Assembly (NCBI RefSeq): GCF_006175995.1 | Contig: NZ_VDMB01000015.1 | Coordinates: 1 to 64,000 of the forward strand | From: Desulfobotulus mexicanus | GTDB taxonomy: Bacteria > Desulfobacterota > Desulfobacteria > Desulfobacterales > ASO4-4 | Direction: 5' to 3' | Length of the DNA: 64,000 nucleotides | Shown: in pieces, positions 1 through 9,007 of the stretch | How positions within the stretch are numbered: the stretch's first letter is position 1 | Layout: the number at the start of each line of letters is the position of its first letter | The notes under the pieces: model-generated | Seen by the model: the letters and a program-made list of their open reading frames with translations, nothing else | What the model was told of the DNA's origin: nothing | Database searches by the model: none | Made by a program: the position numbers and the translations under genes

Positions 1-212
1 TTGCAGCGGTACTCAAAGTGACAGGATTAAACATCCTGAGGGCAACTGCGTTCAGAAATCGCCTCAAAAGGGTAAAAAGGGGAGGTGAGGGGGCAAACAC
101 CCTTAAATTTGCCCTTCATAAGGTTGTCAAAGAGCGCATTTTACATCTACCAGACTCGATTCATCAATTTGTAAGGATATTTTTGTCCCGGAACAATCTT
201 TTCAACTTTTCC

Positions 213-782
213 TCACAAAATATGGCTTGAGACTTTTTGCGAGTGCATCACAGTTAGTTCACCTATTATTTCATAACCAAGGGCTTCAAGTGGTTTTTTC
301 ATAGCCTCTATAGTAAAGCCCATATCTTCAATGGATTCTTGTTCACATATTGCAGCAACGATGGCTTTTCTATTCTGATTATCCAACTGGCTTGACCAAC
401 TTCTCGGACGATCATTTTCAAAATTATAGAAACAATAAAGCCGATCGATAAAGGCTTTCATCCAAGACGTGATATTATAATTATGGGTGGGTGATACCAG
501 CACTAAGCCCTTTGAGGAAAACAGTTTTGGATAAATCTGTGACATATCATCAACTAACCCGGTGCATATCTTGGTTTTTCTACATTTTTCACATCCGATA
601 CACCCCTTAAACTCCATATCTGTTAAATTGTAACAATCAGAAGGAGATCCTGCTTGATTAACCCCTGACATTATACTTTTAAGCAATATGTCAGAGTTCC
701 CATTCTTCCTGGGGCTTCCACTAAATCCAACTACTTTATTCTCTGGTATTTTATTTGTCAGAGTAATTAGTGATGATGACAT
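213..782 (-). CDS. iron-sulfur flavoprotein-like NAD(P)H-dependent FMN reductase
   Basis: A 189-residue flavodoxin-fold protein. The N-terminal GFSGSPRKNGNSD (about residues 19-31) is the FMN-phosphate loop of the NADPH-dependent FMN reductase family. About 35 residues later comes a compact cysteine cluster CIGCEKCRKTKIC (C-x2-C-x2-C-x5-C), as in iron-sulfur flavoproteins that bind a 4Fe-4S cluster. SPTHNYNITSWMKAFIDR matches the second flavin-contact region. The role is therefore probably electron transfer or quinone/O2 detoxification; the substrate is unknown. The start is supported by AGGAAAATAAAATC before the ATG. The gene is AT-rich like the rest of the left segment and sits just past an attC-like site, so it may be cassette cargo; no attC was recognised after its own stop codon. 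Confidence 0.8.
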   Translation of the reverse strand: MSSSLITLTNKIPENKVVGFSGSPRKNGNSDILLKSIMSGVNQAGSPSDCYNLTDMEFKGCIGCEKCRKTKICTGLVDDMSQIYPKLFSSKGLVLVSPTHNYNITSWMKAFIDRLYCFYNFENDRPRSWSSQLDNQNRKAIVAAICEQESIEDMGFTIEAMKKPLEALGYEIIGELTVMHSQKVSSHIL

Positions 783-904
783 GATTTTATTTTCCTGTAG
801 CTACTAAAAAGCTCATTTCCCGCTCGACGTAGATAAAAACACCTGAACCTTGTTATAAGATCTCAAGCAGCGGATTCTTTCTTGAGTGGTGTTTCGGTTT
901 TATT

Positions 905-975
905 AGTAACGCTACGCTCTGCGGCAAAATTGGAGCGCAACGGAAAATTTGTCCGACAGCAGCGTCTTGTTAGTA
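905..975 (-). other. attC-like integron recombination site (end of the ABC-3C cassette)
   Basis: Read on the minus strand, the site starts with TACTAACAAG and ends with GCGTTACTA, so the outer boxes are nearly complementary (TACTAAC against GTTACTA, one mismatch). The inner arms are CTGTCGGACAAATTTTCC and CCAATTTTGCCGCAG. These pair except for an unpaired T and A on the 5' arm, which is the extrahelical-base signature of folded attC sites. It lies 6 bp after the stop codon of the ABC-3C ATPase gene, the usual place for an attC. The R' box is imperfect against the GTTRRRY consensus. Confidence 0.62.
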
Positions 976-980
976 TTTAT

Positions 981-2672
981 TTATACGCCAAAAAACTTTT
1001 CATCTTCGTCAAGCAAAAGCACAATATCTTTCGATATTTTTCTATAAGTATCAATACCTATCTTGTCTGAGAGCATTGACAATATTTGTTGACCAGGAAG
1101 CCTTTGGGAGATTTCGAATATTTCGTCGATCTGATTCTTATCAATATCTTCGATGCTGTCATGAAAAACAAAACGAGGCCTACTAAGTGATAGCTCAGAG
1201 ACGGTATTAATATAAGCAAAATCAAACGCAATAACTTCGGCTTTCTTCTTTCCGCCCTCAGGATTCGTCACGGAATTCTTCATTTCGATAGTGCACATTC
1301 CGCTATCTTTATTAAAAGATAGGTCGACTTCATATTCATCGTCGTGAAGCCTCTTAGTGATTATTTTGAAGTGTCTATTGAACGTCTTTTCGAAAAAATA
1401 GACATTATCAATCTCTTTTAATATGGAATCTAATATCCGACTTAGATCATTTTCTGCTGACTGAAGATCAGATTTGGCTTTGGACTGTTGCTCCAATAAC
1501 CCTTCCAACTTTCCAAGTTCAACTTTTAATTCACCTAACCGCTTCAAGTTTCTCGTTACATTCTCCAGGCTTTCTTTCGAACGCATATCTGAGAAAACCT
1601 TAACTTTATCTCTTCTTATAGCATTAAGCTCAGCGACAAGTTCTTCCTTTTCTTTAAGGAGGTTAGGTATGTCGACTCCTAGAAATTGCTTCTTTTTTTC
1701 CACAAGATTATTGTGAAATTGAACAACATCCTCAAGGTCCCTTAATGCACCATCAATCGCGATTGCAGAAAACTCATAAATTGCTCTTAATTGATTAATT
1801 AAATATCCATCTTTATCTTTAGACAGTAGCTCAATTGTACGGTAGATGTTGTCAATCTTTCGCTCTGTTGATAAGAGGGCATTAGCAAATTTGTCTTCTT
1901 CCGCCTGTAGTTCGGAGAGCCTCTCAATAGGATTTGAATATTCCGGTGAATACTCAAATTTTAAAAGATTATCTTCCAACTCTTTTGCATCTACTCTGTA
2001 TTTTTTGATTTCATTTGATGGTTTTTGCTCTTTGACCATCGCATTTATAGACTGAGAATTTCTTTTTCTTCTGTTAACTAAGTTTGTAGCATCTCTCTTT
2101 TCTGTCAGGAGACCAGTGTCGTTGAACCCAAATAAATAAAGAAACAACTCACTGTAATCTTTTCCTCCAGAGTTTTTATCCAAAAACTTTGTCGTGCTTA
2201 GCATTCTGTGGCTGCTATTTCTTATAAATTTCGGCGTAACAGAACGAACAGAAGGTCTCCTTGTCAGGATGTGGAAAATTTTGTCTTGTATGAAAATTTC
2301 ATATTCTTTAGGTTCTGCCTTGACCCCGTCAATGAAATATACTTGATTCTCATCGTTGCCGATCGACAAGGACCTAGATATTTGATGAATTGTTCCTTTG
2401 CTGTCCAAAAATGAAAGTGACGCTACAACAGCGTTATTTGTGAATAAAGACTCAATTTCGTGATTTGGCTTCTTGAATTCCTCATCAATATAGATGCTTG
2501 ATATGCTTCCCAGCATCAAAAAATCCACCACTCGGGATAGTGTTGATTTGCCGACGCTATTTCCCGTCCTCCCAGAATTAGGCTTATTGGTAACTAGATT
2601 AAGTCCGTCGTGAAACTTTACTAATCTTTTAACTTTGCCATTTATTGTTACTTCAAGGTTGAGTAACTTCAT
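981..2672 (-). CDS. ABC-3C system SMC-like ATPase (DUF2326 family)
   Basis: A 563-residue P-loop ATPase of the SMC/RecN-like ABC class, called here as the motor of an ABC-three-component conflict system. The Walker A is GRTGNSVGKST (about residues 34-44), directly after a beta-rich start typical of DUF2326. A long charged helical middle (about 190-440) is probable coiled coil. The C-terminal ATPase half contains RPRFVFHDSIEDID (about 500), where FVFHD takes the Walker B/D-loop position. I chose the ATG at 2672 because the MKLLNLEV start matches the family and overlaps the upstream MC6 gene by 20 bp, implying translational coupling; an in-frame start at 2696 is less likely. It is the last gene of a four-gene minus-strand operon and AT-rich compared with the core genome. 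The family role in biological conflict comes from comparative genomics; the trigger and target are unknown. Confidence 0.85.
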   Translation of the reverse strand: MKLLNLEVTINGKVKRLVKFHDGLNLVTNKPNSGRTGNSVGKSTLSRVVDFLMLGSISSIYIDEEFKKPNHEIESLFTNNAVVASLSFLDSKGTIHQISRSLSIGNDENQVYFIDGVKAEPKEYEIFIQDKIFHILTRRPSVRSVTPKFIRNSSHRMLSTTKFLDKNSGGKDYSELFLYLFGFNDTGLLTEKRDATNLVNRRKRNSQSINAMVKEQKPSNEIKKYRVDAKELEDNLLKFEYSPEYSNPIERLSELQAEEDKFANALLSTERKIDNIYRTIELLSKDKDGYLINQLRAIYEFSAIAIDGALRDLEDVVQFHNNLVEKKKQFLGVDIPNLLKEKEELVAELNAIRRDKVKVFSDMRSKESLENVTRNLKRLGELKVELGKLEGLLEQQSKAKSDLQSAENDLSRILDSILKEIDNVYFFEKTFNRHFKIITKRLHDDEYEVDLSFNKDSGMCTIEMKNSVTNPEGGKKKAEVIAFDFAYINTVSELSLSRPRFVFHDSIEDIDKNQIDEIFEISQRLPGQQILSMLSDKIGIDTYRKISKDIVLLLDEDEKFFGV

Positions 2673-2886
2673 TAATATAGACCTCGTTACCATCAAAATT
2701 TATTGCATTAATAGCGAACAGCCAGTCAAGAGACAGGATGATGTGATCAAGTGATATCTCAAATTCAAGAGGGTAGGAAAAGAAAATGTATTCGATGCTC
2801 ACATTTTCTCTCATTAAGTTTTCGAGGATTTTTGCGCCAATAGTAACGACATTTATCTCTGGGTCACATCCCTTAATCGGAATCAT
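2653..2886 (-). CDS. ABC-3C system middle component, MC6-like
   Basis: A 77-residue protein between the effector-type gene (2-bp gap) and the ATPase gene (20-bp overlap). Its pattern fits the small middle component 6 of ABC-3C systems: a short N-terminal segment, a helix with GAKILENL (about 17-24), then a winged-helix-like end with IILSLDWLFAINAINFDGNEVY (quoted in part: LSLDWLFAINAI, about 51-62). Middle components are predicted adaptors linking the ABC ATPase to the C-terminal-domain effector. The family call rests on size, position and the D-W-L-F/L-x-x-I-x-A/G-I pattern, not on a search. Confidence 0.7.
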   Translation of the reverse strand: MIPIKGCDPEINVVTIGAKILENLMRENVSIEYIFFSYPLEFEISLDHIILSLDWLFAINAINFDGNEVYINEVTQP

Positions 2887-2887
2887 T

Positions 2888-3460
2888 TTACGGGTTCTCC
2901 ATTATGATGCATTCTATAAATGCATGTGCTACAACAACGTTGACGCCTAATTCAATATGTTCTTTATACTTTGGAGTATTATTTGATTCGAACGCAGTAT
3001 TTTTCAGTTTTTGTATAATAAAATCTAAGATGAACTCAGAGTTTTCGCGTACCTTTTCAAGTTCGATATCGCACGATAGGTATTCAATTTTCAGTGAATC
3101 CAAGGCAAGATAATAGAGATCGTTTAAATTTTGCAAGATTGTATCTTTTCCAAAAGCAATCAAACTATCAATTTCTTTATAAGCCTCTTCAATTTTGGAA
3201 GAGTAATCAAGATACTGCTTTATTATGTGGCTTTTAGAGATCAAATTATTGTATTTAATCTTTACGATAGTCTCTGACGACGGACGTCGCCTTATTAGTT
3301 TAAATTCAAAAGGCTTATTTGCTAGACTTTCTAGCAACTGATTAATGACTGAACTAACTTCATATTCTGGTGAACTTCCAATATATATGTTCCCAGCATT
3401 TTTTTCAACATTGATAGTCTTATTAGCAGACGAAGAACTTTTACTATTATCAGTGCTCAA
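2888..3460 (-). CDS. ABC-3C system effector component with C-terminal (CTD) domain
   Basis: A 190-residue protein. The C-terminal half ends with HIELGVNVVVAHAFIECIIMENP, whose core LGVNVVVAHAFIEC (about 172-185) matches the ABC-3C CTD signature; this domain is thought to couple effectors to the ABC/MC complex. The N-terminal 40 residues are polar and contain KNAGNIYIGS, resembling the C-terminus of the preceding 79-residue membrane protein. No nuclease or protease domain is fused to it, unlike many ABC-3C effectors, so the effector function may reside in the neighbouring membrane protein. The start is a TTG 10 bp after the upstream stop codon, with GAGG about 9 bp before it. Confidence 0.72.
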   Translation of the reverse strand: MSTDNSKSSSSANKTINVEKNAGNIYIGSSPEYEVSSVINQLLESLANKPFEFKLIRRRPSSETIVKIKYNNLISKSHIIKQYLDYSSKIEEAYKEIDSLIAFGKDTILQNLNDLYYLALDSLKIEYLSCDIELEKVRENSEFILDFIIQKLKNTAFESNNTPKYKEHIELGVNVVVAHAFIECIIMENP

Positions 3461-3470
3461 TACTTTGCCC

Positions 3471-3710
3471 TCACATGTTAATGTTCATGCCGCCAGAGTT
3501 GTGTTTTGTATACAGACTCTTTTCTCCATATTGCGCAACAGTATCTTGGCCATTATCAATACTAACTATATTTTCAAGCTTCTGCATCTTTAGCTTTAGT
3601 GACTTGTTTTCTCTTCTTTTTATAATTGAATATGCGGTGCTACCGACAGTGCAAAGCCAAGCAATACCTACACCAATATCTGATTTTAAAAAGTCTAGTA
3701 ATATATCCAT
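3471..3710 (-). CDS. small single-pass membrane protein of the ABC-3C operon
   Basis: A 79-residue protein and first gene of the ABC-3C operon. Residues about 13-30 (VGIAWLCTVGSTAYSII) form one transmembrane helix. A basic stretch RRENKSLKLK follows, then a short amphipathic segment and a C-terminal TKHNSGGMNINM. The tail resembles NAGNIYIGS at the start of the next protein, suggesting a shared interaction strand. It has no named domain. By position it is a candidate membrane-acting effector or anchor. It starts at the ATG at 3710, preceded by AAGGTAACCA. Confidence 0.65.
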   Translation of the reverse strand: MDILLDFLKSDIGVGIAWLCTVGSTAYSIIKRRENKSLKLKMQKLENIVSIDNGQDTVAQYGEKSLYTKHNSGGMNINM

Positions 3711-3777
3711 TTGGTTACCTTAAGTTATGAAATATGCATAGTTTTATAAAGCTAACGGGCCGGGGCTGACGTGGGAA

Positions 3778-3936
3778 ATCGTGGTGCTGACCGGCGCCGA
3801 GCGCCGATCAAGCAGACGCAGTCTGGTTTATCGGTGTGAGGTGTCCGGTCGAGTACCTTGTTCAGGCGCGTAGCGCCGGGGCAAGGTATTCGACGTAGTC
3901 AGCACCACGATTCACGGCGGCGCAGCCGCCGTGAAC
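3778..3936. repeat. 159-bp hairpin-rich direct repeat, copy 1
   Basis: Identical by eye over 159 bp to 4791-4949, in the same orientation. It contains a perfect 14-bp inverted repeat, ATCGTGGTGCTGAC at 3778-3791 and its complement at 3898-3911. Nested inside are near-complementary arms GTCGAGTACCTTG/CAAGGTATTCGAC and a GC hairpin CGGCGCCGAGCGCCG. A separate perfect palindrome TTCACGGCGGC/GCCGCCGTGAA lies at 3911-3935. On the minus strand the identity begins exactly at the GTT that closes the attC-like site, so it forms the 5' leader of the ABC-3C cassette. Confidence 0.9.
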
Positions 3937-3990
3937 GCCAGCCATCAGCGGCGCGCACCTTTGGCGCGTCCGCTGGATGGTTTTGTTATG
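3937..3990 (-). other. attC-like integron recombination site (end of the PIN cassette)
   Basis: On the minus strand it runs from CATAACAAAACC to GGCTGGC, with the closing GTT at 3934-3936. The 5' arm CCATCCAGCGGACGCGC pairs with the 3' arm GCGCGCCGCTGATGG, except for one unpaired C and one unpaired A on the 5' arm. On the folded bottom strand these are the extrahelical G and T typical of attC sites. The stop codon TAA of the PIN gene (3986-3988) lies inside the opening TAAC box, as is common in gene cassettes. Confidence 0.68.
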
Positions 3991-4762
3991 TGCTTATCTT
4001 TAGTTTTTCCGCCAAATCTTCTGGCGAGATTAACCGAAAACCATAATTGCTTTTTAGCCAGCCTAGATTTGACTCGCTAAATACCGATGTATCACCTGCC
4101 TTATGAGCATTGTCTCTAGAACAAAAGTAGTCGCCATTTACAGCAATATGACAAGCTACTGAATCACCGTCAGCCCATTCGGCAATGGCTTTAGCAATAT
4201 TTCCATTTTCGTGTTCTGGAGCTTTTTCAATGCCTCTTGTCCATTGGGAATCATATTTCTTTCCTAATGCCTGTATACGCGAGATGCCAGCCCCGTTTGA
4301 CTCTATTTCCCTGGCAACCTTGAAAACCATATCTTGATATGCTTTCAGGTCATTATGCTGGTAAAAATTTGATTCAATATCTGGATTTACTATGCCCCCA
4401 ATCCTTGGCAGTTTAATTATTTGGAACCCAATGGCTATAGCATCGTTTAGATGTTTTTCTAAGTAACTATTATTTCCCGGATGAGCAGACTTATCTGGTC
4501 CAATGGAAAAAGATACATTTATACCTTCTCCCTGATCTTGCTCTGAGATGTTTACTTTAGGTTTGTATTCAGAAAAAAACTCCTTCCGATCTTTTCTTTT
4601 TATGGCCTCAAGGGTAAACACTGTTTCACACAAAAATGGTGTACTTCTATTTTCGTCAATTGCTTTCCTAATTTGCTTAAAGCTCTCTATAGATGATTCA
4701 TTAGGAAAAGTGTCTGGTGAGGCAATTATTCGCCACACATTTGAATCGAACGTTATTTTCAT
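3986..4762 (-). CDS. PIN-like domain protein (putative ribonuclease)
   Basis: A 258-residue protein with the acidic pattern of PIN-fold nucleases. It opens with KITFDSNVWR (D6), has ETVFTLEAIKRK at about residue 50 and a C-terminal ADGDSVACHIAVNGDYFCSRD, where the two acidic positions and the strand-turn resemble the second half of a PIN active site. This suggests a metal-dependent RNase. The ATG at 4762 follows AAAAGGAAAAGGTG; an in-frame ATG at 4789 has no better ribosome site and is followed by a non-family extension. It is the only gene between two identical 159-bp repeats and ends in an attC-like site, so it is best read as a single-gene integron cassette. No antitoxin-like partner is adjacent. 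The PIN assignment is by motif pattern only. Confidence 0.6.
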   Translation of the reverse strand: MKITFDSNVWRIIASPDTFPNESSIESFKQIRKAIDENRSTPFLCETVFTLEAIKRKDRKEFFSEYKPKVNISEQDQGEGINVSFSIGPDKSAHPGNNSYLEKHLNDAIAIGFQIIKLPRIGGIVNPDIESNFYQHNDLKAYQDMVFKVAREIESNGAGISRIQALGKKYDSQWTRGIEKAPEHENGNIAKAIAEWADGDSVACHIAVNGDYFCSRDNAHKAGDTSVFSESNLGWLKSNYGFRLISPEDLAEKLKIST

Positions 4763-4790
4763 GGAGTACACCTTTTCCTTTTCACACATA

Positions 4791-4949
4791 ATCGTGGTGC
4801 TGACCGGCGCCGAGCGCCGATCAAGCAGACGCAGTCTGGTTTATCGGTGTGAGGTGTCCGGTCGAGTACCTTGTTCAGGCGCGTAGCGCCGGGGCAAGGT
4901 ATTCGACGTAGTCAGCACCACGATTCACGGCGGCGCAGCCGCCGTGAAC
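4791..4949. repeat. 159-bp hairpin-rich direct repeat, copy 2
   Basis: Exact duplicate of 3778-3936, including the 14-bp inverted repeats (4791-4804 and 4911-4924) and the adjacent GC palindrome. It precedes the PIN gene on the minus strand. Identity ends at GTGAAC (4944-4949), that is, at GTT on the minus strand. Beyond it (CAATAACTT) there is no attC-like arm, so this is the outer edge of the recognisable cassette cluster. Confidence 0.9.
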
Positions 4950-5332
4950 AAGTTATTGTGCAGATCTGTATAATCACCACTATTTTTAAAAATAAAGAGA
5001 ATAAAAAATCACCTAAAAATAATTTTTCTAACCACAGAATCCGCAATTTATCATGATAAGCAGAAAACCTGATATCTTCGATTTTTCAGTCCCCGCCTGA
5101 GTCCTTTTAAAAAATACTCACACCCAAGGCAACCAGAAATCATTCAATTTTTTTAAACCAGCTTTTCTTTCATGACAAGTATTTCTTTACCTCAAGGCAG
5201 ACTGCCAGCCATTTGACTTATTAAATCCTTTTTTCTGTCTGGTTTCTGAACAATCACCTGTGAAACAGTCATGGAGTTGAAAAATATGCATAAAAACAAA
5301 GTGCTGATCTGAAGTTTTCAGTTTTTTTCTTC
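4950..5332. other. AT-rich non-coding junction
   Basis: No open frame, attC or RNA gene was recognised. The stretch is strongly AT-rich and separates the cassette-like segment from the core gene set that starts with the cupin gene. No integrase gene is present on this side. Confidence 0.5.
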
Positions 5333-5650
5333 TCAGTAATGCACGGCCAGCCAGATGGTTTCCACATCCGGAGCCGTCCACTCCACCCTGTGTTCGGATC
5401 GGGCGGGAATAACCAGATAGTCCCCCGGCTCTAAAATCACCGTGGCTTCGGGATTTCTGAAACGTATCCCGGCCCGGCCCTGCACCACAAGAACAAATTC
5501 ATTTTTTTCCTGATCATACCAGAAGCCCTCGGGCGAGGCATGACCCTTGGACAGAATACGTTCAATCACAAGTCCCTGATGCCGGACAAGGGGCTCAAAA
5601 ACTTCTTTTTCCAGCTTATCAGGCAGATTGGCAAAGAGGGATTGTTTCAT
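5333..5650 (-). CDS. small cupin-domain protein
   Basis: A 105-residue single-domain beta-barrel (cupin_2-type). The second cupin motif is clear: LEPGDYLVIPARSEHRVEW at about 73-91, with the conserved P-G-D and the metal-position His. The first motif is present as WYDQEKNEFVLVVQGRAG but lacks the usual His-x-His, so metal binding is uncertain. Such proteins often act on small metabolites or as sensors; the substrate cannot be inferred. It stands alone, downstream of cydD and the element relic at 5690-5814. Confidence 0.75.
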   Translation of the reverse strand: MKQSLFANLPDKLEKEVFEPLVRHQGLVIERILSKGHASPEGFWYDQEKNEFVLVVQGRAGIRFRNPEATVILEPGDYLVIPARSEHRVEWTAPDVETIWLAVHY

Positions 5651-5689
5651 GGGTTTTTCCTTTTACAGATCATGGTCCAGCCGTATTCT

Positions 5690-5814
5690 AAGAAAAAAGG
5701 CAGCTTTTGGGATGCCGGATTAGGTCACGGTCAAACAGTCTGGGTCTTGCACTGGAACGAGGCCGCTGAAATTACAATGCTGGAATTTAAGGGTAAATAA
5801 TGCTGAATAATTAC
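5690..5814. mobile_element. relic of the GTAA-ended MITE family
   Basis: The right end TGCTGAATAATTAC (5801-5814) is identical to the right terminal repeat of the intact copies at 18525-18873 and 34827-35005. The inner part (TAGGTCACGGTCAAACAGTCTG) aligns with the conserved interior GCGTCACGGGCAAACAGCCTG; only 20-base fragments are quoted here. The left terminus is lost. It lies 10 bp past the cydD stop codon, where a cydC gene would normally be. Confidence 0.6.
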
Positions 5815-5824
5815 AGATCTTATT

Positions 5825-7534
5825 TTATAATATCTTCCCGGTCCGCACCATGCTTCCCTTATCCATGTGCACAAGAAAGTCCAGCCAGTCAAGCCCTTCC
5901 AGATGGTGGGTGGCAAGGATCAGGGTTTTTCCGCTGCTGATCCTGCCAAGTTCCATGCGCACGGCCTTTGCGGTTTCAGGGTCCAGATGGGCTCCCGGCT
6001 CATCCAGAATCCAGAGGGGCGCATCCTGAAGAATGGCCCTTGCCAGAGCCAGACGCTGAAGCTGCCCGCCGGAAAATCCCAGACCGCCTTCACCCATGGG
6101 ACTGTTCAAGCCCATGGGCAGGGCTTTTACAAAATCAAGGGCTCCGGCTTCACCTAAGACCCGCAGAAGTTCGGTATCCGGTGCATCGGGTCGGCCAAGG
6201 CGCAGGTTTTCCCCAAGGGTTCCGGAAAACCATTCCGGCTTCTGACCCAGCCAGGCAATCTTTTTTCGGAAGGTATCCGCATCCAGAGTCTCAAGGGGCT
6301 TGTCATCCACAAAAATCTGTCCCTGGGAAGGTCTGTCAAAGCCGAGAAGAAGGGTCAGTATGCTGCTTTTTCCTGCTCCGCTGGGCCCCACCAGACCCAC
6401 CCGCTGGCCTGCCTGAATGTGGAGATCCACATCCTTTATTACGGCATTTCTTCCATCGGGACGCCAGCTCAGTTTTTCCATGCGGATGGAAGGTGCTACT
6501 TCTGGCTGCCATTCAAGCTTACCGGAAACAGGGTGAAGGCTTGCGGTCTTCACAAGGGGAAGCAGGGAAGAAGCCGCTGCCATGGCCTGGGCCTTTGCAT
6601 GGTAATCTGCCCCCAGACGGCGCAGGGCCATATAGTATTCCGGAATAAGCAGCAGAATGAAAAGGCCGGAGAGCAGAGGAACCGGAACCGTCCCCCTGGC
6701 CCATGGCACATGGCCTAAGAGTCCCATGCCCAGATACACGGCCACCAGTGCGATGGACAAAGAGGCAAAAAGTTCCAGAACAGCAGAAGAAAGAAAGGCC
6801 AGCTTCAGTACGGAAAGGGTTTTCTTTTTGTAGCCTTCTGCAGCCAGACTCAGCTTTTCACGGGCCGGTTCCACGGCATTGAGCTGGCGCAGAACCGGGA
6901 GTCCCCGCAGAAGATCCCGTATGCGGCCTGCCAGAAGGGATAGGGCCTGAAACTGTTTTCGTCCGGCCCGGGCTGCCTCATTGCCCACCAGCACCATGAA
7001 AAAAGGAATGAGGGGGGCTGTCACCAGAAGGAGCAGGGCCACAAGGCGGCTGTGGGGCCATATTGCAAGAACAATGACAAGGGGAGTGACCACGGCCAGA
7101 ATTTTCTGGGGCAGATAGCGCACAATATAGTCATCCATGGCATCCACCTGCTCAAGAACCATGGCGGAAAGAACACCGTCTCCCGCAATACGGCTTCTGT
7201 GGGGACCTGCATCAGTAATTTTTTCCAGAAGTTCCCTTCGCAGACGGCGGCGAAGGTAAAGGCCTGCACGGAGTCCGAAGCCATCCTTTGCCGCAAGTAA
7301 AAGGGGCCTCAGTAGAAGGCAGAGTCCCAATAGCCAGAAGGACGTCTTGTCAAACCGGTTTTCTAAGGCCAGCCCCACCAGAAGATCCGCCAGAAAAAAA
7401 CACTGGAACACCATGGCAAGGGCGGCCATGCTTCCCGCAAGGGCTGATATGAAAAGCAGGCCCTGTACCCGTTTCACCTGAGCTTTCAGCCAGACCTCTG
7501 CATTGGCTTCCGTATCTTTGCTTATTTCCTTCAA
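5825..7534 (-). CDS. cydD: CydD-like thiol-reductant ABC exporter subunit
   Basis: A 569-residue fused membrane/ATPase ABC half-transporter. Six hydrophobic segments fill residues about 25-325. The nucleotide-binding domain has Walker A GLVGPSGAGKSS (380-391), signature GFSGGQLQRLA (486-496) and Walker B LWILDEP (507-513). RRRLRRELL and the GNEAA/RDLLRGL stretches match CydD, which with CydC exports glutathione or cysteine to the periplasm for cytochrome bd assembly. The start is a TTG at 7534. It is the last gene of a cpxR-cpxA-cydD minus-strand run, 42 bp after cpxA. No cydC partner is present in the window, and a MITE relic occupies the position just downstream. Confidence 0.82.
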   Translation of the reverse strand: MKEISKDTEANAEVWLKAQVKRVQGLLFISALAGSMAALAMVFQCFFLADLLVGLALENRFDKTSFWLLGLCLLLRPLLLAAKDGFGLRAGLYLRRRLRRELLEKITDAGPHRSRIAGDGVLSAMVLEQVDAMDDYIVRYLPQKILAVVTPLVIVLAIWPHSRLVALLLLVTAPLIPFFMVLVGNEAARAGRKQFQALSLLAGRIRDLLRGLPVLRQLNAVEPAREKLSLAAEGYKKKTLSVLKLAFLSSAVLELFASLSIALVAVYLGMGLLGHVPWARGTVPVPLLSGLFILLLIPEYYMALRRLGADYHAKAQAMAAASSLLPLVKTASLHPVSGKLEWQPEVAPSIRMEKLSWRPDGRNAVIKDVDLHIQAGQRVGLVGPSGAGKSSILTLLLGFDRPSQGQIFVDDKPLETLDADTFRKKIAWLGQKPEWFSGTLGENLRLGRPDAPDTELLRVLGEAGALDFVKALPMGLNSPMGEGGLGFSGGQLQRLALARAILQDAPLWILDEPGAHLDPETAKAVRMELGRISSGKTLILATHHLEGLDWLDFLVHMDKGSMVRTGKIL

Positions 7535-7576
7535 AAAAAGAGATCCTTTATTTTTTTATCTGAAAGTGCCTGTTCT

Positions 7577-8992
7577 TCAGCTTGATAATGCCGCCGGAGA
7601 ATCCCCTCCCTTTTTTAAGGGCAGGCGGATATTCACGGAAAAACCCTTTTCATGGTTGACGGCACGGATGCTTCCGCCATGACGACGTATGGCCTGTCCT
7701 GTGATGGCAAGGCCAAGGCCCACGCCGCCGGTGCGCCTGTCCCTGTCATCGTGAACCCTGTAAAAGGGCTCAAAAATCCGGGGAAGATCCTTTTCCGGCA
7801 CACCCGGTCCGGGGTCCGAGACCCGGAGTACAGCCTCATTTTCTTCCTCAATGGCCAGAAATACCTCTACTTCACCTTCCTCCGGTGTATATCTCAGGGC
7901 ATTGCGGATTACATTCTCCACAGCCCTGTGCAGAAGGGTGGGCGATCCTTCCAGCAGGATCTCTTCTGTTCCGGAAAATATGACGGAGCGTCTCTGGCCC
8001 TGGGCCTCAAAATCCGCATCCGCCACCACATCCATGACAAGGCGGGAAAAATTTATTTTCTCAAAGGGAAGATCTTCCCCGTTTCCTGAGCTTAGGCGGG
8101 CAAGGGTAAGGATTTCTCCTATCATGGTATTGAGGCGTTCCATCTCCATTTCCATGCGTCCCAGAGCCGCCGTATCCCCGCCGCCCTTGCGGGCCAGCTC
8201 CAGAGCCACTGCCATGCGGGCCAGAGGGGAGCGCAGTTCATGGGAAATATCCCTCAGCAGTCTGTCCCTTGAGTTCAGCAGATCTGCCATGCGGCCTGTC
8301 ATGGCATCAAAGTCTCTGGCAAGAAGTCCCAGTTCGTCCTTTCGGTTTCCCATATGCGGAGCCACCCTTACCGCAAGATTACCCGCAGCCACATTGCGGG
8401 TGGCGGAGCGCAGTCTTGCTATGGGACCTGTGATATGTCGGGCAATGGCCCAGCAGAGAATGACCGCAAGAAAAATGGAGCTCCAGAAGCGGATGCCCAG
8501 ATCTTTGGGAAAGCGGAACATGAGACGCTCGGCGTGGGGAGGGAGGGGAACAAGGGCCACCATGATCCAGATTTCTTCCCTGTGGGAAAAGCCGGTAAGT
8601 ATGAGGAGTTCGCTGCCCAGAACATCCACCCTTGCTGCCTTTTCTCCGGAAAGTTCCTGCAGAATATTCTGCACCTGCTCCGGCAGGGGATCTCCTGACA
8701 CGGAAAGATGGTCCGGATAAAGAAGCCAGGTTCTGGTACGCATTCTTTCCAGAAAGCGCTGCCTGTAGGAGAGATATCCCTCCATACCTTCATCCTTGAG
8801 CACGGCAGCGGCACCGTATCCGTAAAGTTCAACGGACTGCCTGAACATTTCCTGCCTTTCATGGCGCACCCTCTGGCGGTGTTCACTCCATGGTCCCTTG
8901 GATGCGGTGAAGGCCAGAATCACGGACAGTGCCATGCTGGCAAGGGTAAAGGCCAGAAATCCGAAGAAAAGTTTAATGAAAAGCCGGTGCAT
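7577..8992 (-). CDS. cpxA: CpxA-like envelope-stress sensor histidine kinase
   Basis: A 471-residue inner-membrane kinase. It has a membrane helix at about 8-30, a periplasmic sensor at 31-165, a second helix at about 168-186, HAMP at about 187-240, the phospho-acceptor DISHELRSPLARM with H251, an N-box ENVIRNALRY (359-368), and G boxes DPGPG and GGVGLGLAI (about 393-430). HELRSPLARM is the CpxA/RstB-type H-box. It starts 15 bp after cpxR and is presumably co-transcribed with it. A perfect CpxR box upstream of the pair supports the Cpx assignment over other OmpR-class systems. Confidence 0.85.
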   Translation of the reverse strand: MHRLFIKLFFGFLAFTLASMALSVILAFTASKGPWSEHRQRVRHERQEMFRQSVELYGYGAAAVLKDEGMEGYLSYRQRFLERMRTRTWLLYPDHLSVSGDPLPEQVQNILQELSGEKAARVDVLGSELLILTGFSHREEIWIMVALVPLPPHAERLMFRFPKDLGIRFWSSIFLAVILCWAIARHITGPIARLRSATRNVAAGNLAVRVAPHMGNRKDELGLLARDFDAMTGRMADLLNSRDRLLRDISHELRSPLARMAVALELARKGGGDTAALGRMEMEMERLNTMIGEILTLARLSSGNGEDLPFEKINFSRLVMDVVADADFEAQGQRRSVIFSGTEEILLEGSPTLLHRAVENVIRNALRYTPEEGEVEVFLAIEEENEAVLRVSDPGPGVPEKDLPRIFEPFYRVHDDRDRRTGGVGLGLAITGQAIRRHGGSIRAVNHEKGFSVNIRLPLKKGGDSPAALSS

Positions 8993-9007
8993 AAAAATTC
9001 CTGATCT

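What the first reader, a model, noticed from the sequence alone, without database searches (positions are those of the whole stretch)
3778..4949. Identical 159-bp structured leaders on two adjacent cassettes
3778-3936 and 4791-4949 are identical by eye and each starts, on the coding strand, at the cassette GTT. They contain a perfect 14-bp inverted repeat enclosing a nested hairpin, plus a GC palindrome. Sequence identity here while the genes and outer flanks differ implies recent duplication, or an element that targets the cassette junction.
Basis: seen in the sequence. Interest (0 to 1): 0.65.

Follow-up and report, generated by a model that had tools for sequence, protein, structure and literature searches.

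The report
Gene-free hairpin unit in integron arrays
A 160-letter piece of DNA that carries no gene and folds into a branched hairpin sits at the joints where bacteria insert borrowed genes; it occurs in many sulphate-reducing bacteria and looks like a minimal hitch-hiker on their gene-capture system.

Summary
In detail: 3777-3936 and 4790-4949 are identical over 160 bp. It is not a leader belonging to the two genes. The genome holds four full copies and two short ones; 161 non-redundant copies were collected, most from Desulfobacterota and their relatives. Most copies sit between the G and the TT of an integron crossover, behind an attC or attI-like site, with one orientation, and are followed by the TT of the next cassette. 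Near-identical copies with unrelated flanks on both sides occur in nine genomes, so the unit itself moved. The fold is conserved by compensatory changes with almost no G-T pairs, which points to folded DNA rather than RNA. Its hairpins read as the R and L boxes of one attC whose cassette body has shrunk to three bases. I propose an ORF-less mini-cassette made almost wholly of its own recombination hairpin and moved by the integron integrase. Against this, its core is usually ATT instead of GTT, the spacer that should be unpaired is paired, and 18 of 51 carrier genomes showed no integrase at the threshold used. Movement by integrase is inferred, not shown. ORF-less cassettes are known; this attC-only architecture is a new variant.

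The parts
4790..4949 (-). Element copy 1, array-first position; unit TT...A = 4948 down to 4792, followed by the TT (4791-4790) of the next cassette
   Evidence: 100% identical repeat; R1 hit 4790-4948, 175.7 bits
3777..3936 (-). Element copy 2, behind the attC of the 267-aa cassette
   Evidence: R1 hit 3777-3935, 175.7 bits
4924..4948 (-). Hairpin A of copy 1 (TTCACGGCGGC-TGC-GCCGCCGTGAA): R' start of the unit paired with its R''; the 3-base loop is all that is left of a cassette body (copy 2: 3911-3935)
   Evidence: sequence; helix 1 of A4 99.3% paired, 4 of 11 pairs with double changes
4790..4804 (-). P1 3' arm of copy 1 (GTCAGCACCACGATT): L'/R' side and right boundary A|TT (copy 2: 3777-3791)
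   Evidence: sequence; helix 2 98.9% paired
4911..4925 (-). P1 5' arm of copy 1 (AATCGTGGTGCTGAC): R''/L'' side (copy 2: 3898-3912)
   Evidence: sequence
4861..4907 (-). P2 hairpin of copy 1, branching from the R''-L'' arm, where attC sites carry extrahelical bases (copy 2: 3848-3894)
4805..4860 (-). P3 of copy 1, variable terminal structure; replaced by other hairpins in some relatives (copy 2: 3792-3847)
4947..4973 (-). attI-like site without a neighbouring intI; element copy 1 sits in its G|TT
   Evidence: pattern hit with 0 mismatches; comparison of seven sites
3936..3991 (-). attC of the 267-aa cassette (CACATAAC ... GGCTGGCG|TT); its R'' CACATAAC is complementary to the cassette start GTTATGTG, of which TTATGTG is found directly behind element copy 1
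   Evidence: sequence; R'/R'' test
3986..4789 (-). 267-aa ORF of the first gene cassette, no Pfam family at E<=0.01
3742..3776 (-). Remnant between element copy 2 and the next GTTAGC box: looks like the end of an attC, no ORF
   Evidence: sequence, read by eye

Best explanation
The repeat is an ORF-less integron mini-cassette of about 157 nt. It consists almost entirely of one folded recombination site: hairpin A is the paired R box, P1 is the L box with its spacer paired, P2 branches where attC sites have extrahelical bases, and P3 is a variable terminal structure. As a circle its ends (CCACGA + TTCACGG) would close hairpin A and P1 into one continuous rod. It enters the G|TT of attI-like and attC sites, most likely through the integron integrase acting on the folded single strand, and leaves G-TT-element-A-TT-next cassette. 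It carries no gene and probably persists as a hitch-hiker. SHOWN: the usual boundaries, the orientation, the conserved DNA-like fold, near-identical copies at unrelated sites. INFERRED: that IntI is the enzyme, that a circle is the intermediate, that it is selfish.
For: Boundaries: left base G|TTC in 124 of 161 copies (6 had no left flank), right end GATT in 116 of 161 (9 had no right flank). attC arms in 63 of 113 non-attI flanks against 3 of 777 control sites, plus 32 attI-like flanks. Orientation: attC on the left in 63 of 145, on the right and reversed in 1-2 of 147, a background level. Next-cassette test: 13 of 72 right flanks have the matching R'' 8-mer within 1.5 kb, shuffled mean 1.2, maximum 5 of 200 shuffles. 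Mobility: in 9 genomes at least one pair of copies 97% or more identical has flanks only 15-47% alike over 40 nt on both sides. Filled/empty left junction: contigs C11 and C39 are 91% identical over the 150 nt up to TTTTG|TT, one with a short element, the other with a cassette directly. attC likeness: the L'-box core starts 13-14 nt before the crossover in 65 of 113 host attC flanks, and the element's GGTCA at -14 in 74 of 80. Intact G244 copies and one G368 copy have canonical AAC...G|TT at the right end. Fold: 195 double-change cells, shuffled mean 58.6 and 0 of 500 shuffles as high, 12-21 when partners are slid; 35 G-T against 2471 Watson-Crick of 2594 cells. The one IntI over cut-off in the own genome lies 3.2 kb from one copy.
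Against: Core triplet is ATT/AAT instead of GTT/AAC in most copies. The spacer between R and L boxes is paired; in VCR2/1 pairing it cut recombination 27-fold, and together with loss of the extrahelical bases 85,000-fold (PMC2727003, passages). 33 of 51 carrier genomes have IntI at E<=1e-70 against 153 of 338 others; odds ratio 2.2, one-sided p 0.007: enriched but not required. No empty site for both flanks at once was found in the fetched loci. Eleven copies have A|TTC on the left, and the C12 copy and window copy 2 have three Ts at the right junction, which simple insertion into GTT does not predict. With seven matching bases after TT the next-cassette test no longer exceeds chance (1 of 72 within 1.5 kb, shuffled maximum 2). 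A strict attC was found within 2.5 kb downstream for only 30 of 122 copies (the detector also misses 50 of 113 left flanks). Some copies (L121, L123, L125, L135, L184) lie at sites without a recognisable attC.
Confidence: 0.6

Rival explanations
1. A MITE-like non-autonomous element moved in trans by another recombinase (for example a DEDD or serine enzyme with a TT crossover core) that recognises cassette junctions.
For: Element is flanked by TT on both sides in most copies; 18 of 51 carriers show no IntI at the threshold used; paired spacer and ATT core are poor for IntI (PMC2727003, passages). [quoted passage not shown]
Against: Targets share little sequence besides the crossover, and both attI-like and attC sites are used, which fits structure recognition by IntI better than a sequence-guided enzyme. 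No terminal inverted repeats; no longer relative with room for an ORF inside the unit was seen in the fetched loci. L'-box spacing equals that of host attCs. No search for a shared second recombinase was made.
Confidence: 0.2
2. A structured regulatory RNA (5' leader, insulator or small RNA) kept because it controls the cassette behind it.
For: Strong conserved fold; sense orientation upstream of the next cassette; most tested Vibrio gene-less cassettes drive downstream expression (PMC11014356, passages).
Against: G-T cells are 35 of 2594, low for an RNA helix (general expectation recalled, no control run); no Rfam match above gathering score in window 1-9000; no promoter-like hit on the minus strand inside either copy; cassettes without it exist, including those at 4 of 7 attI-like sites of this genome.
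Confidence: 0.12
3. Ordinary dispersed repeat or local duplication with no link to integrons.
For: A few copies lie at sites without a recognisable attC (L121, L123, L125, L135, L184).
Against: attC/attI association, orientation and G|TT boundary in most copies.
Confidence: 0.03

Closest known systems
ORF-less / gene-less / non-coding integron cassettes (Vibrio: PMC11014356, PMC1382264; oral metagenome: PMC6557892)
   Same: No gene; multi-copy families in arrays (45 copies of one non-coding family in V. vulnificus CMCP6, passage); selfishness was raised there as one possibility
   Different: Here there is practically no body outside the recombination hairpin, the family spans many genera of a phylum, no promoter-like site was seen on the sense strand, core is mostly ATT
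attC recombination sites, VCR type (PMC2727003)
   Same: R''-L''...L'-R' layout, L' box 13-14 nt from the crossover as in host attCs, extra material on the R''-L'' arm, large variable terminal structure
   Different: Spacer paired, extrahelical bases replaced by a whole hairpin (P2), R stem 11 bp, AAT/ATT core in most copies
IS1111-attC insertion sequences (ISKpn4, ISPst6; PMC11187229)
   Different: Those carry a transposase and a seekRNA; this unit has no ORF and also uses attI-like sites
MITEs and REP elements (general knowledge)
   Same: Short, gene-free, palindromic, multi-copy, dependent on a helper
   Different: No terminal inverted repeats; mostly confined to integron crossovers

Membership tests
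Integron cassette | Inserted at the G|TT crossover of attI or attC | tested here: met
   124 of 161 G|TTC; 32 attI-like flanks and 63 of the other 113 with attC arms
Integron cassette | One orientation relative to the array | tested here: met
   63 of 145 forward, 1-2 of 147 reversed
Integron cassette | Moves as a unit with exact ends | tested here: met
   9 genomes with near-identical copies and unrelated flanks; exceptions at single bases
Integron cassette | Excision and insertion by IntI | not testable with these tools
   Only co-occurrence: 33 of 51 against 153 of 338 genomes
attC site | AAC/GTT in R''/R' | tested here: not met
   GATT right end in 116 of 161 copies; canonical in intact G244 copies and one G368 copy
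attC site | Unpaired central spacer between R and L boxes | tested here: not met
   P1 paired throughout
attC site | Extrahelical bases on the R''-L'' arm | tested here: inconclusive
   T-N-C plus the P2 hairpin protrude from that arm instead of single bases
attC site | L'-R' geometry | tested here: met
   L' core at -14 in 74 of 80, host attCs -13/-14 in 65 of 113
ORF-less cassette | No ORF of 70 aa or more | tested here: met
   The unit is about 157 nt; no ORF lies within it (one plus-strand 112-aa ORF runs into copy 1)
ORF-less cassette | Promoter activity | not testable with these tools
   Consensus scan shows none on the minus strand in the element, weak evidence
MITE | Terminal inverted repeats | tested here: not met
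   The two ends are not inverted copies; inverted repeats are internal
Rfam RNA family | Match above gathering score | tested here: not met
   window 1-9000

The most novel reading that the evidence does not exclude
A phylum-wide parasite of integrons: a gene-free DNA hairpin that spreads by imitating an attC, although it breaks two rules of attC function (GTT core, unpaired spacer). It would be the integron counterpart of MITEs and would show that some integron integrases, or a helper, recombine paired sites with an ATT core.
Probability: 0.35. Interest if true: 0.78.

Novelty: new variant of a known kind. Interest (0 to 1): 0.62.

Why it matters
Integrons are known as gene-capture devices. 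A widespread unit reduced to the recombination site alone would show that cassettes can be purely selfish, would offer a natural set of variants (paired spacer, ATT or GTT core, with or without the P2 branch) to test what integron integrases need, and could explain contig breaks and misread 'leaders' in arrays of sulphate reducers.

Tried and rejected
Rfam search of window 1-9000: three hits far below gathering score, judged chance. Plasmid, phage and viral collections: no match. Search for relatives of the 267-aa cassette protein in viral contigs: none. In one search, 133 of 194 genomes have a match at E<=1, but most are short chance matches; 15, the own one included, have E<1e-10. A first attC test by forced folding and a second by folding alone separated flanks from controls only weakly (98 of 145 against 105 of 261 at threshold 14; 53 of 113 against 81 of 519 at 14) and were replaced by a strict arm detector. 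The attI pattern was written after looking at the flanks, so the 32 is not an independent test; the motif list was also written after looking. Empty sites by joined flanks, in the fetched loci only: 28 hits, which are the copies themselves or the same contig fetched twice, except one at 75.6% that reaches 14 nt into the right flank. Longer versions, in the fetched loci only: none; right-half matches on L025, L026 and L059 lack the left half. Short forms: 19 of 161 copies are exactly 57 nt; their sequence fits deletion between two CAGCACC repeats, so they were not counted as independent evidence of movement. Dropped rows: 104 of 156 matches and 82 of 135 were kept; the rest are opposite-strand echoes of a kept copy plus a few partial right-half matches; 186 were merged to 161. 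One search was given 80 of the 82 stretches (L230, L231 were not given); 7 of the 80 had no model match, among them L153 (Brachyspira) and L185 (Actinomycetota). The next-cassette test used only copies. The mobility test used only copies of at least 100 nt whose locus I had assigned to a genome. Of the 50 non-redundant copies seven irregular ones (L112, L117, L122, L136, L141, L159, L208) were left out of A4 by eye, L049 was replaced by the window copy, and seven divergent copies were added; the omission raises the pairing percentages somewhat. MAG contigs labelled Victivallales, Flavobacteriales, Planctomycetota (L171, L209, L221) carry full copies, but misbinning was not excluded, so no claim of spread between phyla is made.

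Full report
Observation. The two stretches are identical over 160 bp, 3777-3936 and 4790-4949, on the minus strand of a cassette array that, read by eye, runs from about 4973 down to below 900. Each copy has an 11-bp hairpin (A), then a 15-bp stem (P1) that encloses two further hairpins (P2, P3). The RNA fold has z = -8.3, the DNA fold of the surrounding 271 nt z = -9.2.

Copies. The own genome (3.83 Mb, 69 contigs) has four full copies, three of them 100% identical, and two short forms that keep hairpin A and P1 only. Among 194 related genomes 15, the own one included, have a BLAST match at E<1e-10; full-length matches run from 73% to 98% identity outside the own genome. A covariance model built from 16 copies finds it in 51 of 389 genomes of the order at E<=0.01 (at most seven candidates per genome were scored, so copy numbers are lower bounds) and in 14 of 395 genomes drawn from the phylum at E<=1e-6, the own genome included. 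A pattern scan of named genomes gave 82 stretches, mostly labelled Desulfobacter, Desulfobacula, Desulfogranum, Desulfobulbus, Desulforhopalus, Desulfocicer or other deltaproteobacterial names. Contig lengths shared between (93,385; 195,387) suggest that the window's order is that of Desulfobacter and Desulfocicer. No match in plasmids, phages or viral contigs.

Site. After merging there are 161 non-redundant copies. The base before TTC is G in 124, A in 11. For two of the four own full copies the DNA behind the element is exactly the start of a cassette whose own attC begins with the complement (window copy 1: TTATGTG / CACATAAC; C3: TTAGCGC / GGCGCTAAC). The C12 copy fits too (TTCGGTC / GACCGAAC) but with one extra T; window copy 2 has no such partner and also three Ts. 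Formally, 13 of 72 distinct right flanks have such an 8-mer partner within 1.5 kb, against a mean of 1.2 and a maximum of 5 in 200 shuffles; with 9-mers it is 7 against at most 4, with 10-mers 1 against at most 2. On the left, 32 of 145 flanks are attI-like, and 63 of the remaining 113 have attC arms of 9 bp or more, against 3 of 777 control sites. Many of the other 50 look like attC to the eye but fail the strict rule; a few do not (L121, L123, L125, L135, L184). The attC is on the left in 63 of 145 and on the right, reversed, in 1-2 of 147; a strict attC within 2.5 kb downstream was found for 30 of 122. So the element usually lies between the G and the TT of an existing junction: G|TT...A|TT.

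Movement. In nine genomes there are copies at least 97% identical with both flanks unrelated. In the own genome seven attI-like sites are known, six from a pattern and one, read by eye, beside the only integrase over the family cut-off. Three carry an element (C15 full, C11 and C12 short), four have other sequence directly at the crossover. C11 and C39 are 91% alike over 150 nt up to the crossover, one filled and one empty. No case with both flanks empty was found in the fetched loci.

Fold and what it means. On 50 diverse copies (A4, selection described under Tried and rejected) 96.6% of cells pair, 20 of 53 pairs show double changes in 195 cells, 0 of 500 shuffles reach this, and sliding the partners leaves 12-21 such cells. 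Double changes far outnumber G-T cells: 35 of 2594, one spurious pair left out. That pattern suggests pairing of DNA strands, by selection or by repair of cruciforms, rather than an RNA. P3 is replaced by other hairpins in several relatives.

Reading as an attC. Hairpin A pairs the first 11 nt of the unit with the 11 nt before P1: in cassette terms, R' with R'', with three bases between them where a gene would be. P1 then carries the L boxes. The L' core GGTCA starts 14 nt before the crossover in 74 of the 80 copies where it was found; host attC flanks have their core at -13 or -14 in 65 of 113. P2 protrudes from the R''-L'' arm, where attC sites carry extrahelical bases, and P3 takes the place of the variable terminal structure. 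In most copies the core is AAT...A|TT, in intact G244 copies and one G368 copy AAC...G|TT, and in L110, L112, L149 the neighbouring pair is lost on both sides: both sides change together. If the ends are joined, the junction CCACGATTCACGG is the exact reverse complement of the internal hairpin A/P1 boundary, so a single-stranded circle would be one continuous rod.

What does not fit. The classical attC rules demand GTT/AAC and an unpaired central spacer; in VCR2/1 pairing of the spacer cost 27-fold, and 85,000-fold when the extrahelical bases were also removed (PMC2727003, passages). Another paper states that IntI1 needs only 5'-GNT-3' (PMC10127599, passages); the element's circle would have G-A-T-T, but the observed ends point to a crossover after the A, not after the G. 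IntI is enriched among carriers but not seen at the threshold used in 18 of 51, some of them incomplete genomes, others listed as complete (G322). Hence integrase-driven movement stays an inference at 0.6.

Known relatives. ORF-less cassettes are established: non-coding Vibrio cassettes form large paralogous families and were discussed as possibly selfish (PMC1382264, passages); most of 29 tested ones act as promoters (PMC11014356, passages). Ten full-text searches of the open library listed no paper whose title or abstract start names an attC-only cassette or such an element in Desulfobacterota; only listings and passages were seen, and subscription papers are not held. I therefore call it a new variant of a known kind.

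Noticed in passing
window 4947-4973; G000 contigs C3, C11, C12, C13, C19, C39: Seven attI-like sites on seven contigs of one genome with a single integron integrase over the cut-off; some pairs are alike over 150 nt upstream (C11/C39 91%, C15/C12 77%, C13/C19 73%). Several array starts may be served by one integrase in trans.
   Followed up: partly
window 981-3710: Gene set inside the array resembling an ABC-three-component defence system: MC6 (PF20293, above cut-off), CTD10 (below cut-off), a 571-aa protein matching PADLOC PDC-M68B, apparently one multi-gene cassette.
   Followed up: partly
L123 3281, 13343, 14164 (minus): Three degenerate 118-nt copies in one genome with similar left flanks that are not an attC: perhaps a second dispersal route or a later duplication.
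   Followed up: no
30 short copies, e.g. L047 12766, L128 3369 and 7589: Short forms of 51-69 nt; 19 copies are exactly 57 nt, fitting deletion between CAGCACC repeats in P2 and P1. Two identical ones lie at different sites of one genome (L128, G251).
   Followed up: partly
L044 5458, 8500, 13857: In one genome (G128) nearly the same attI-like sequence plus a full or short element recurs three times within 9 kb, each before a different sequence.
   Followed up: no
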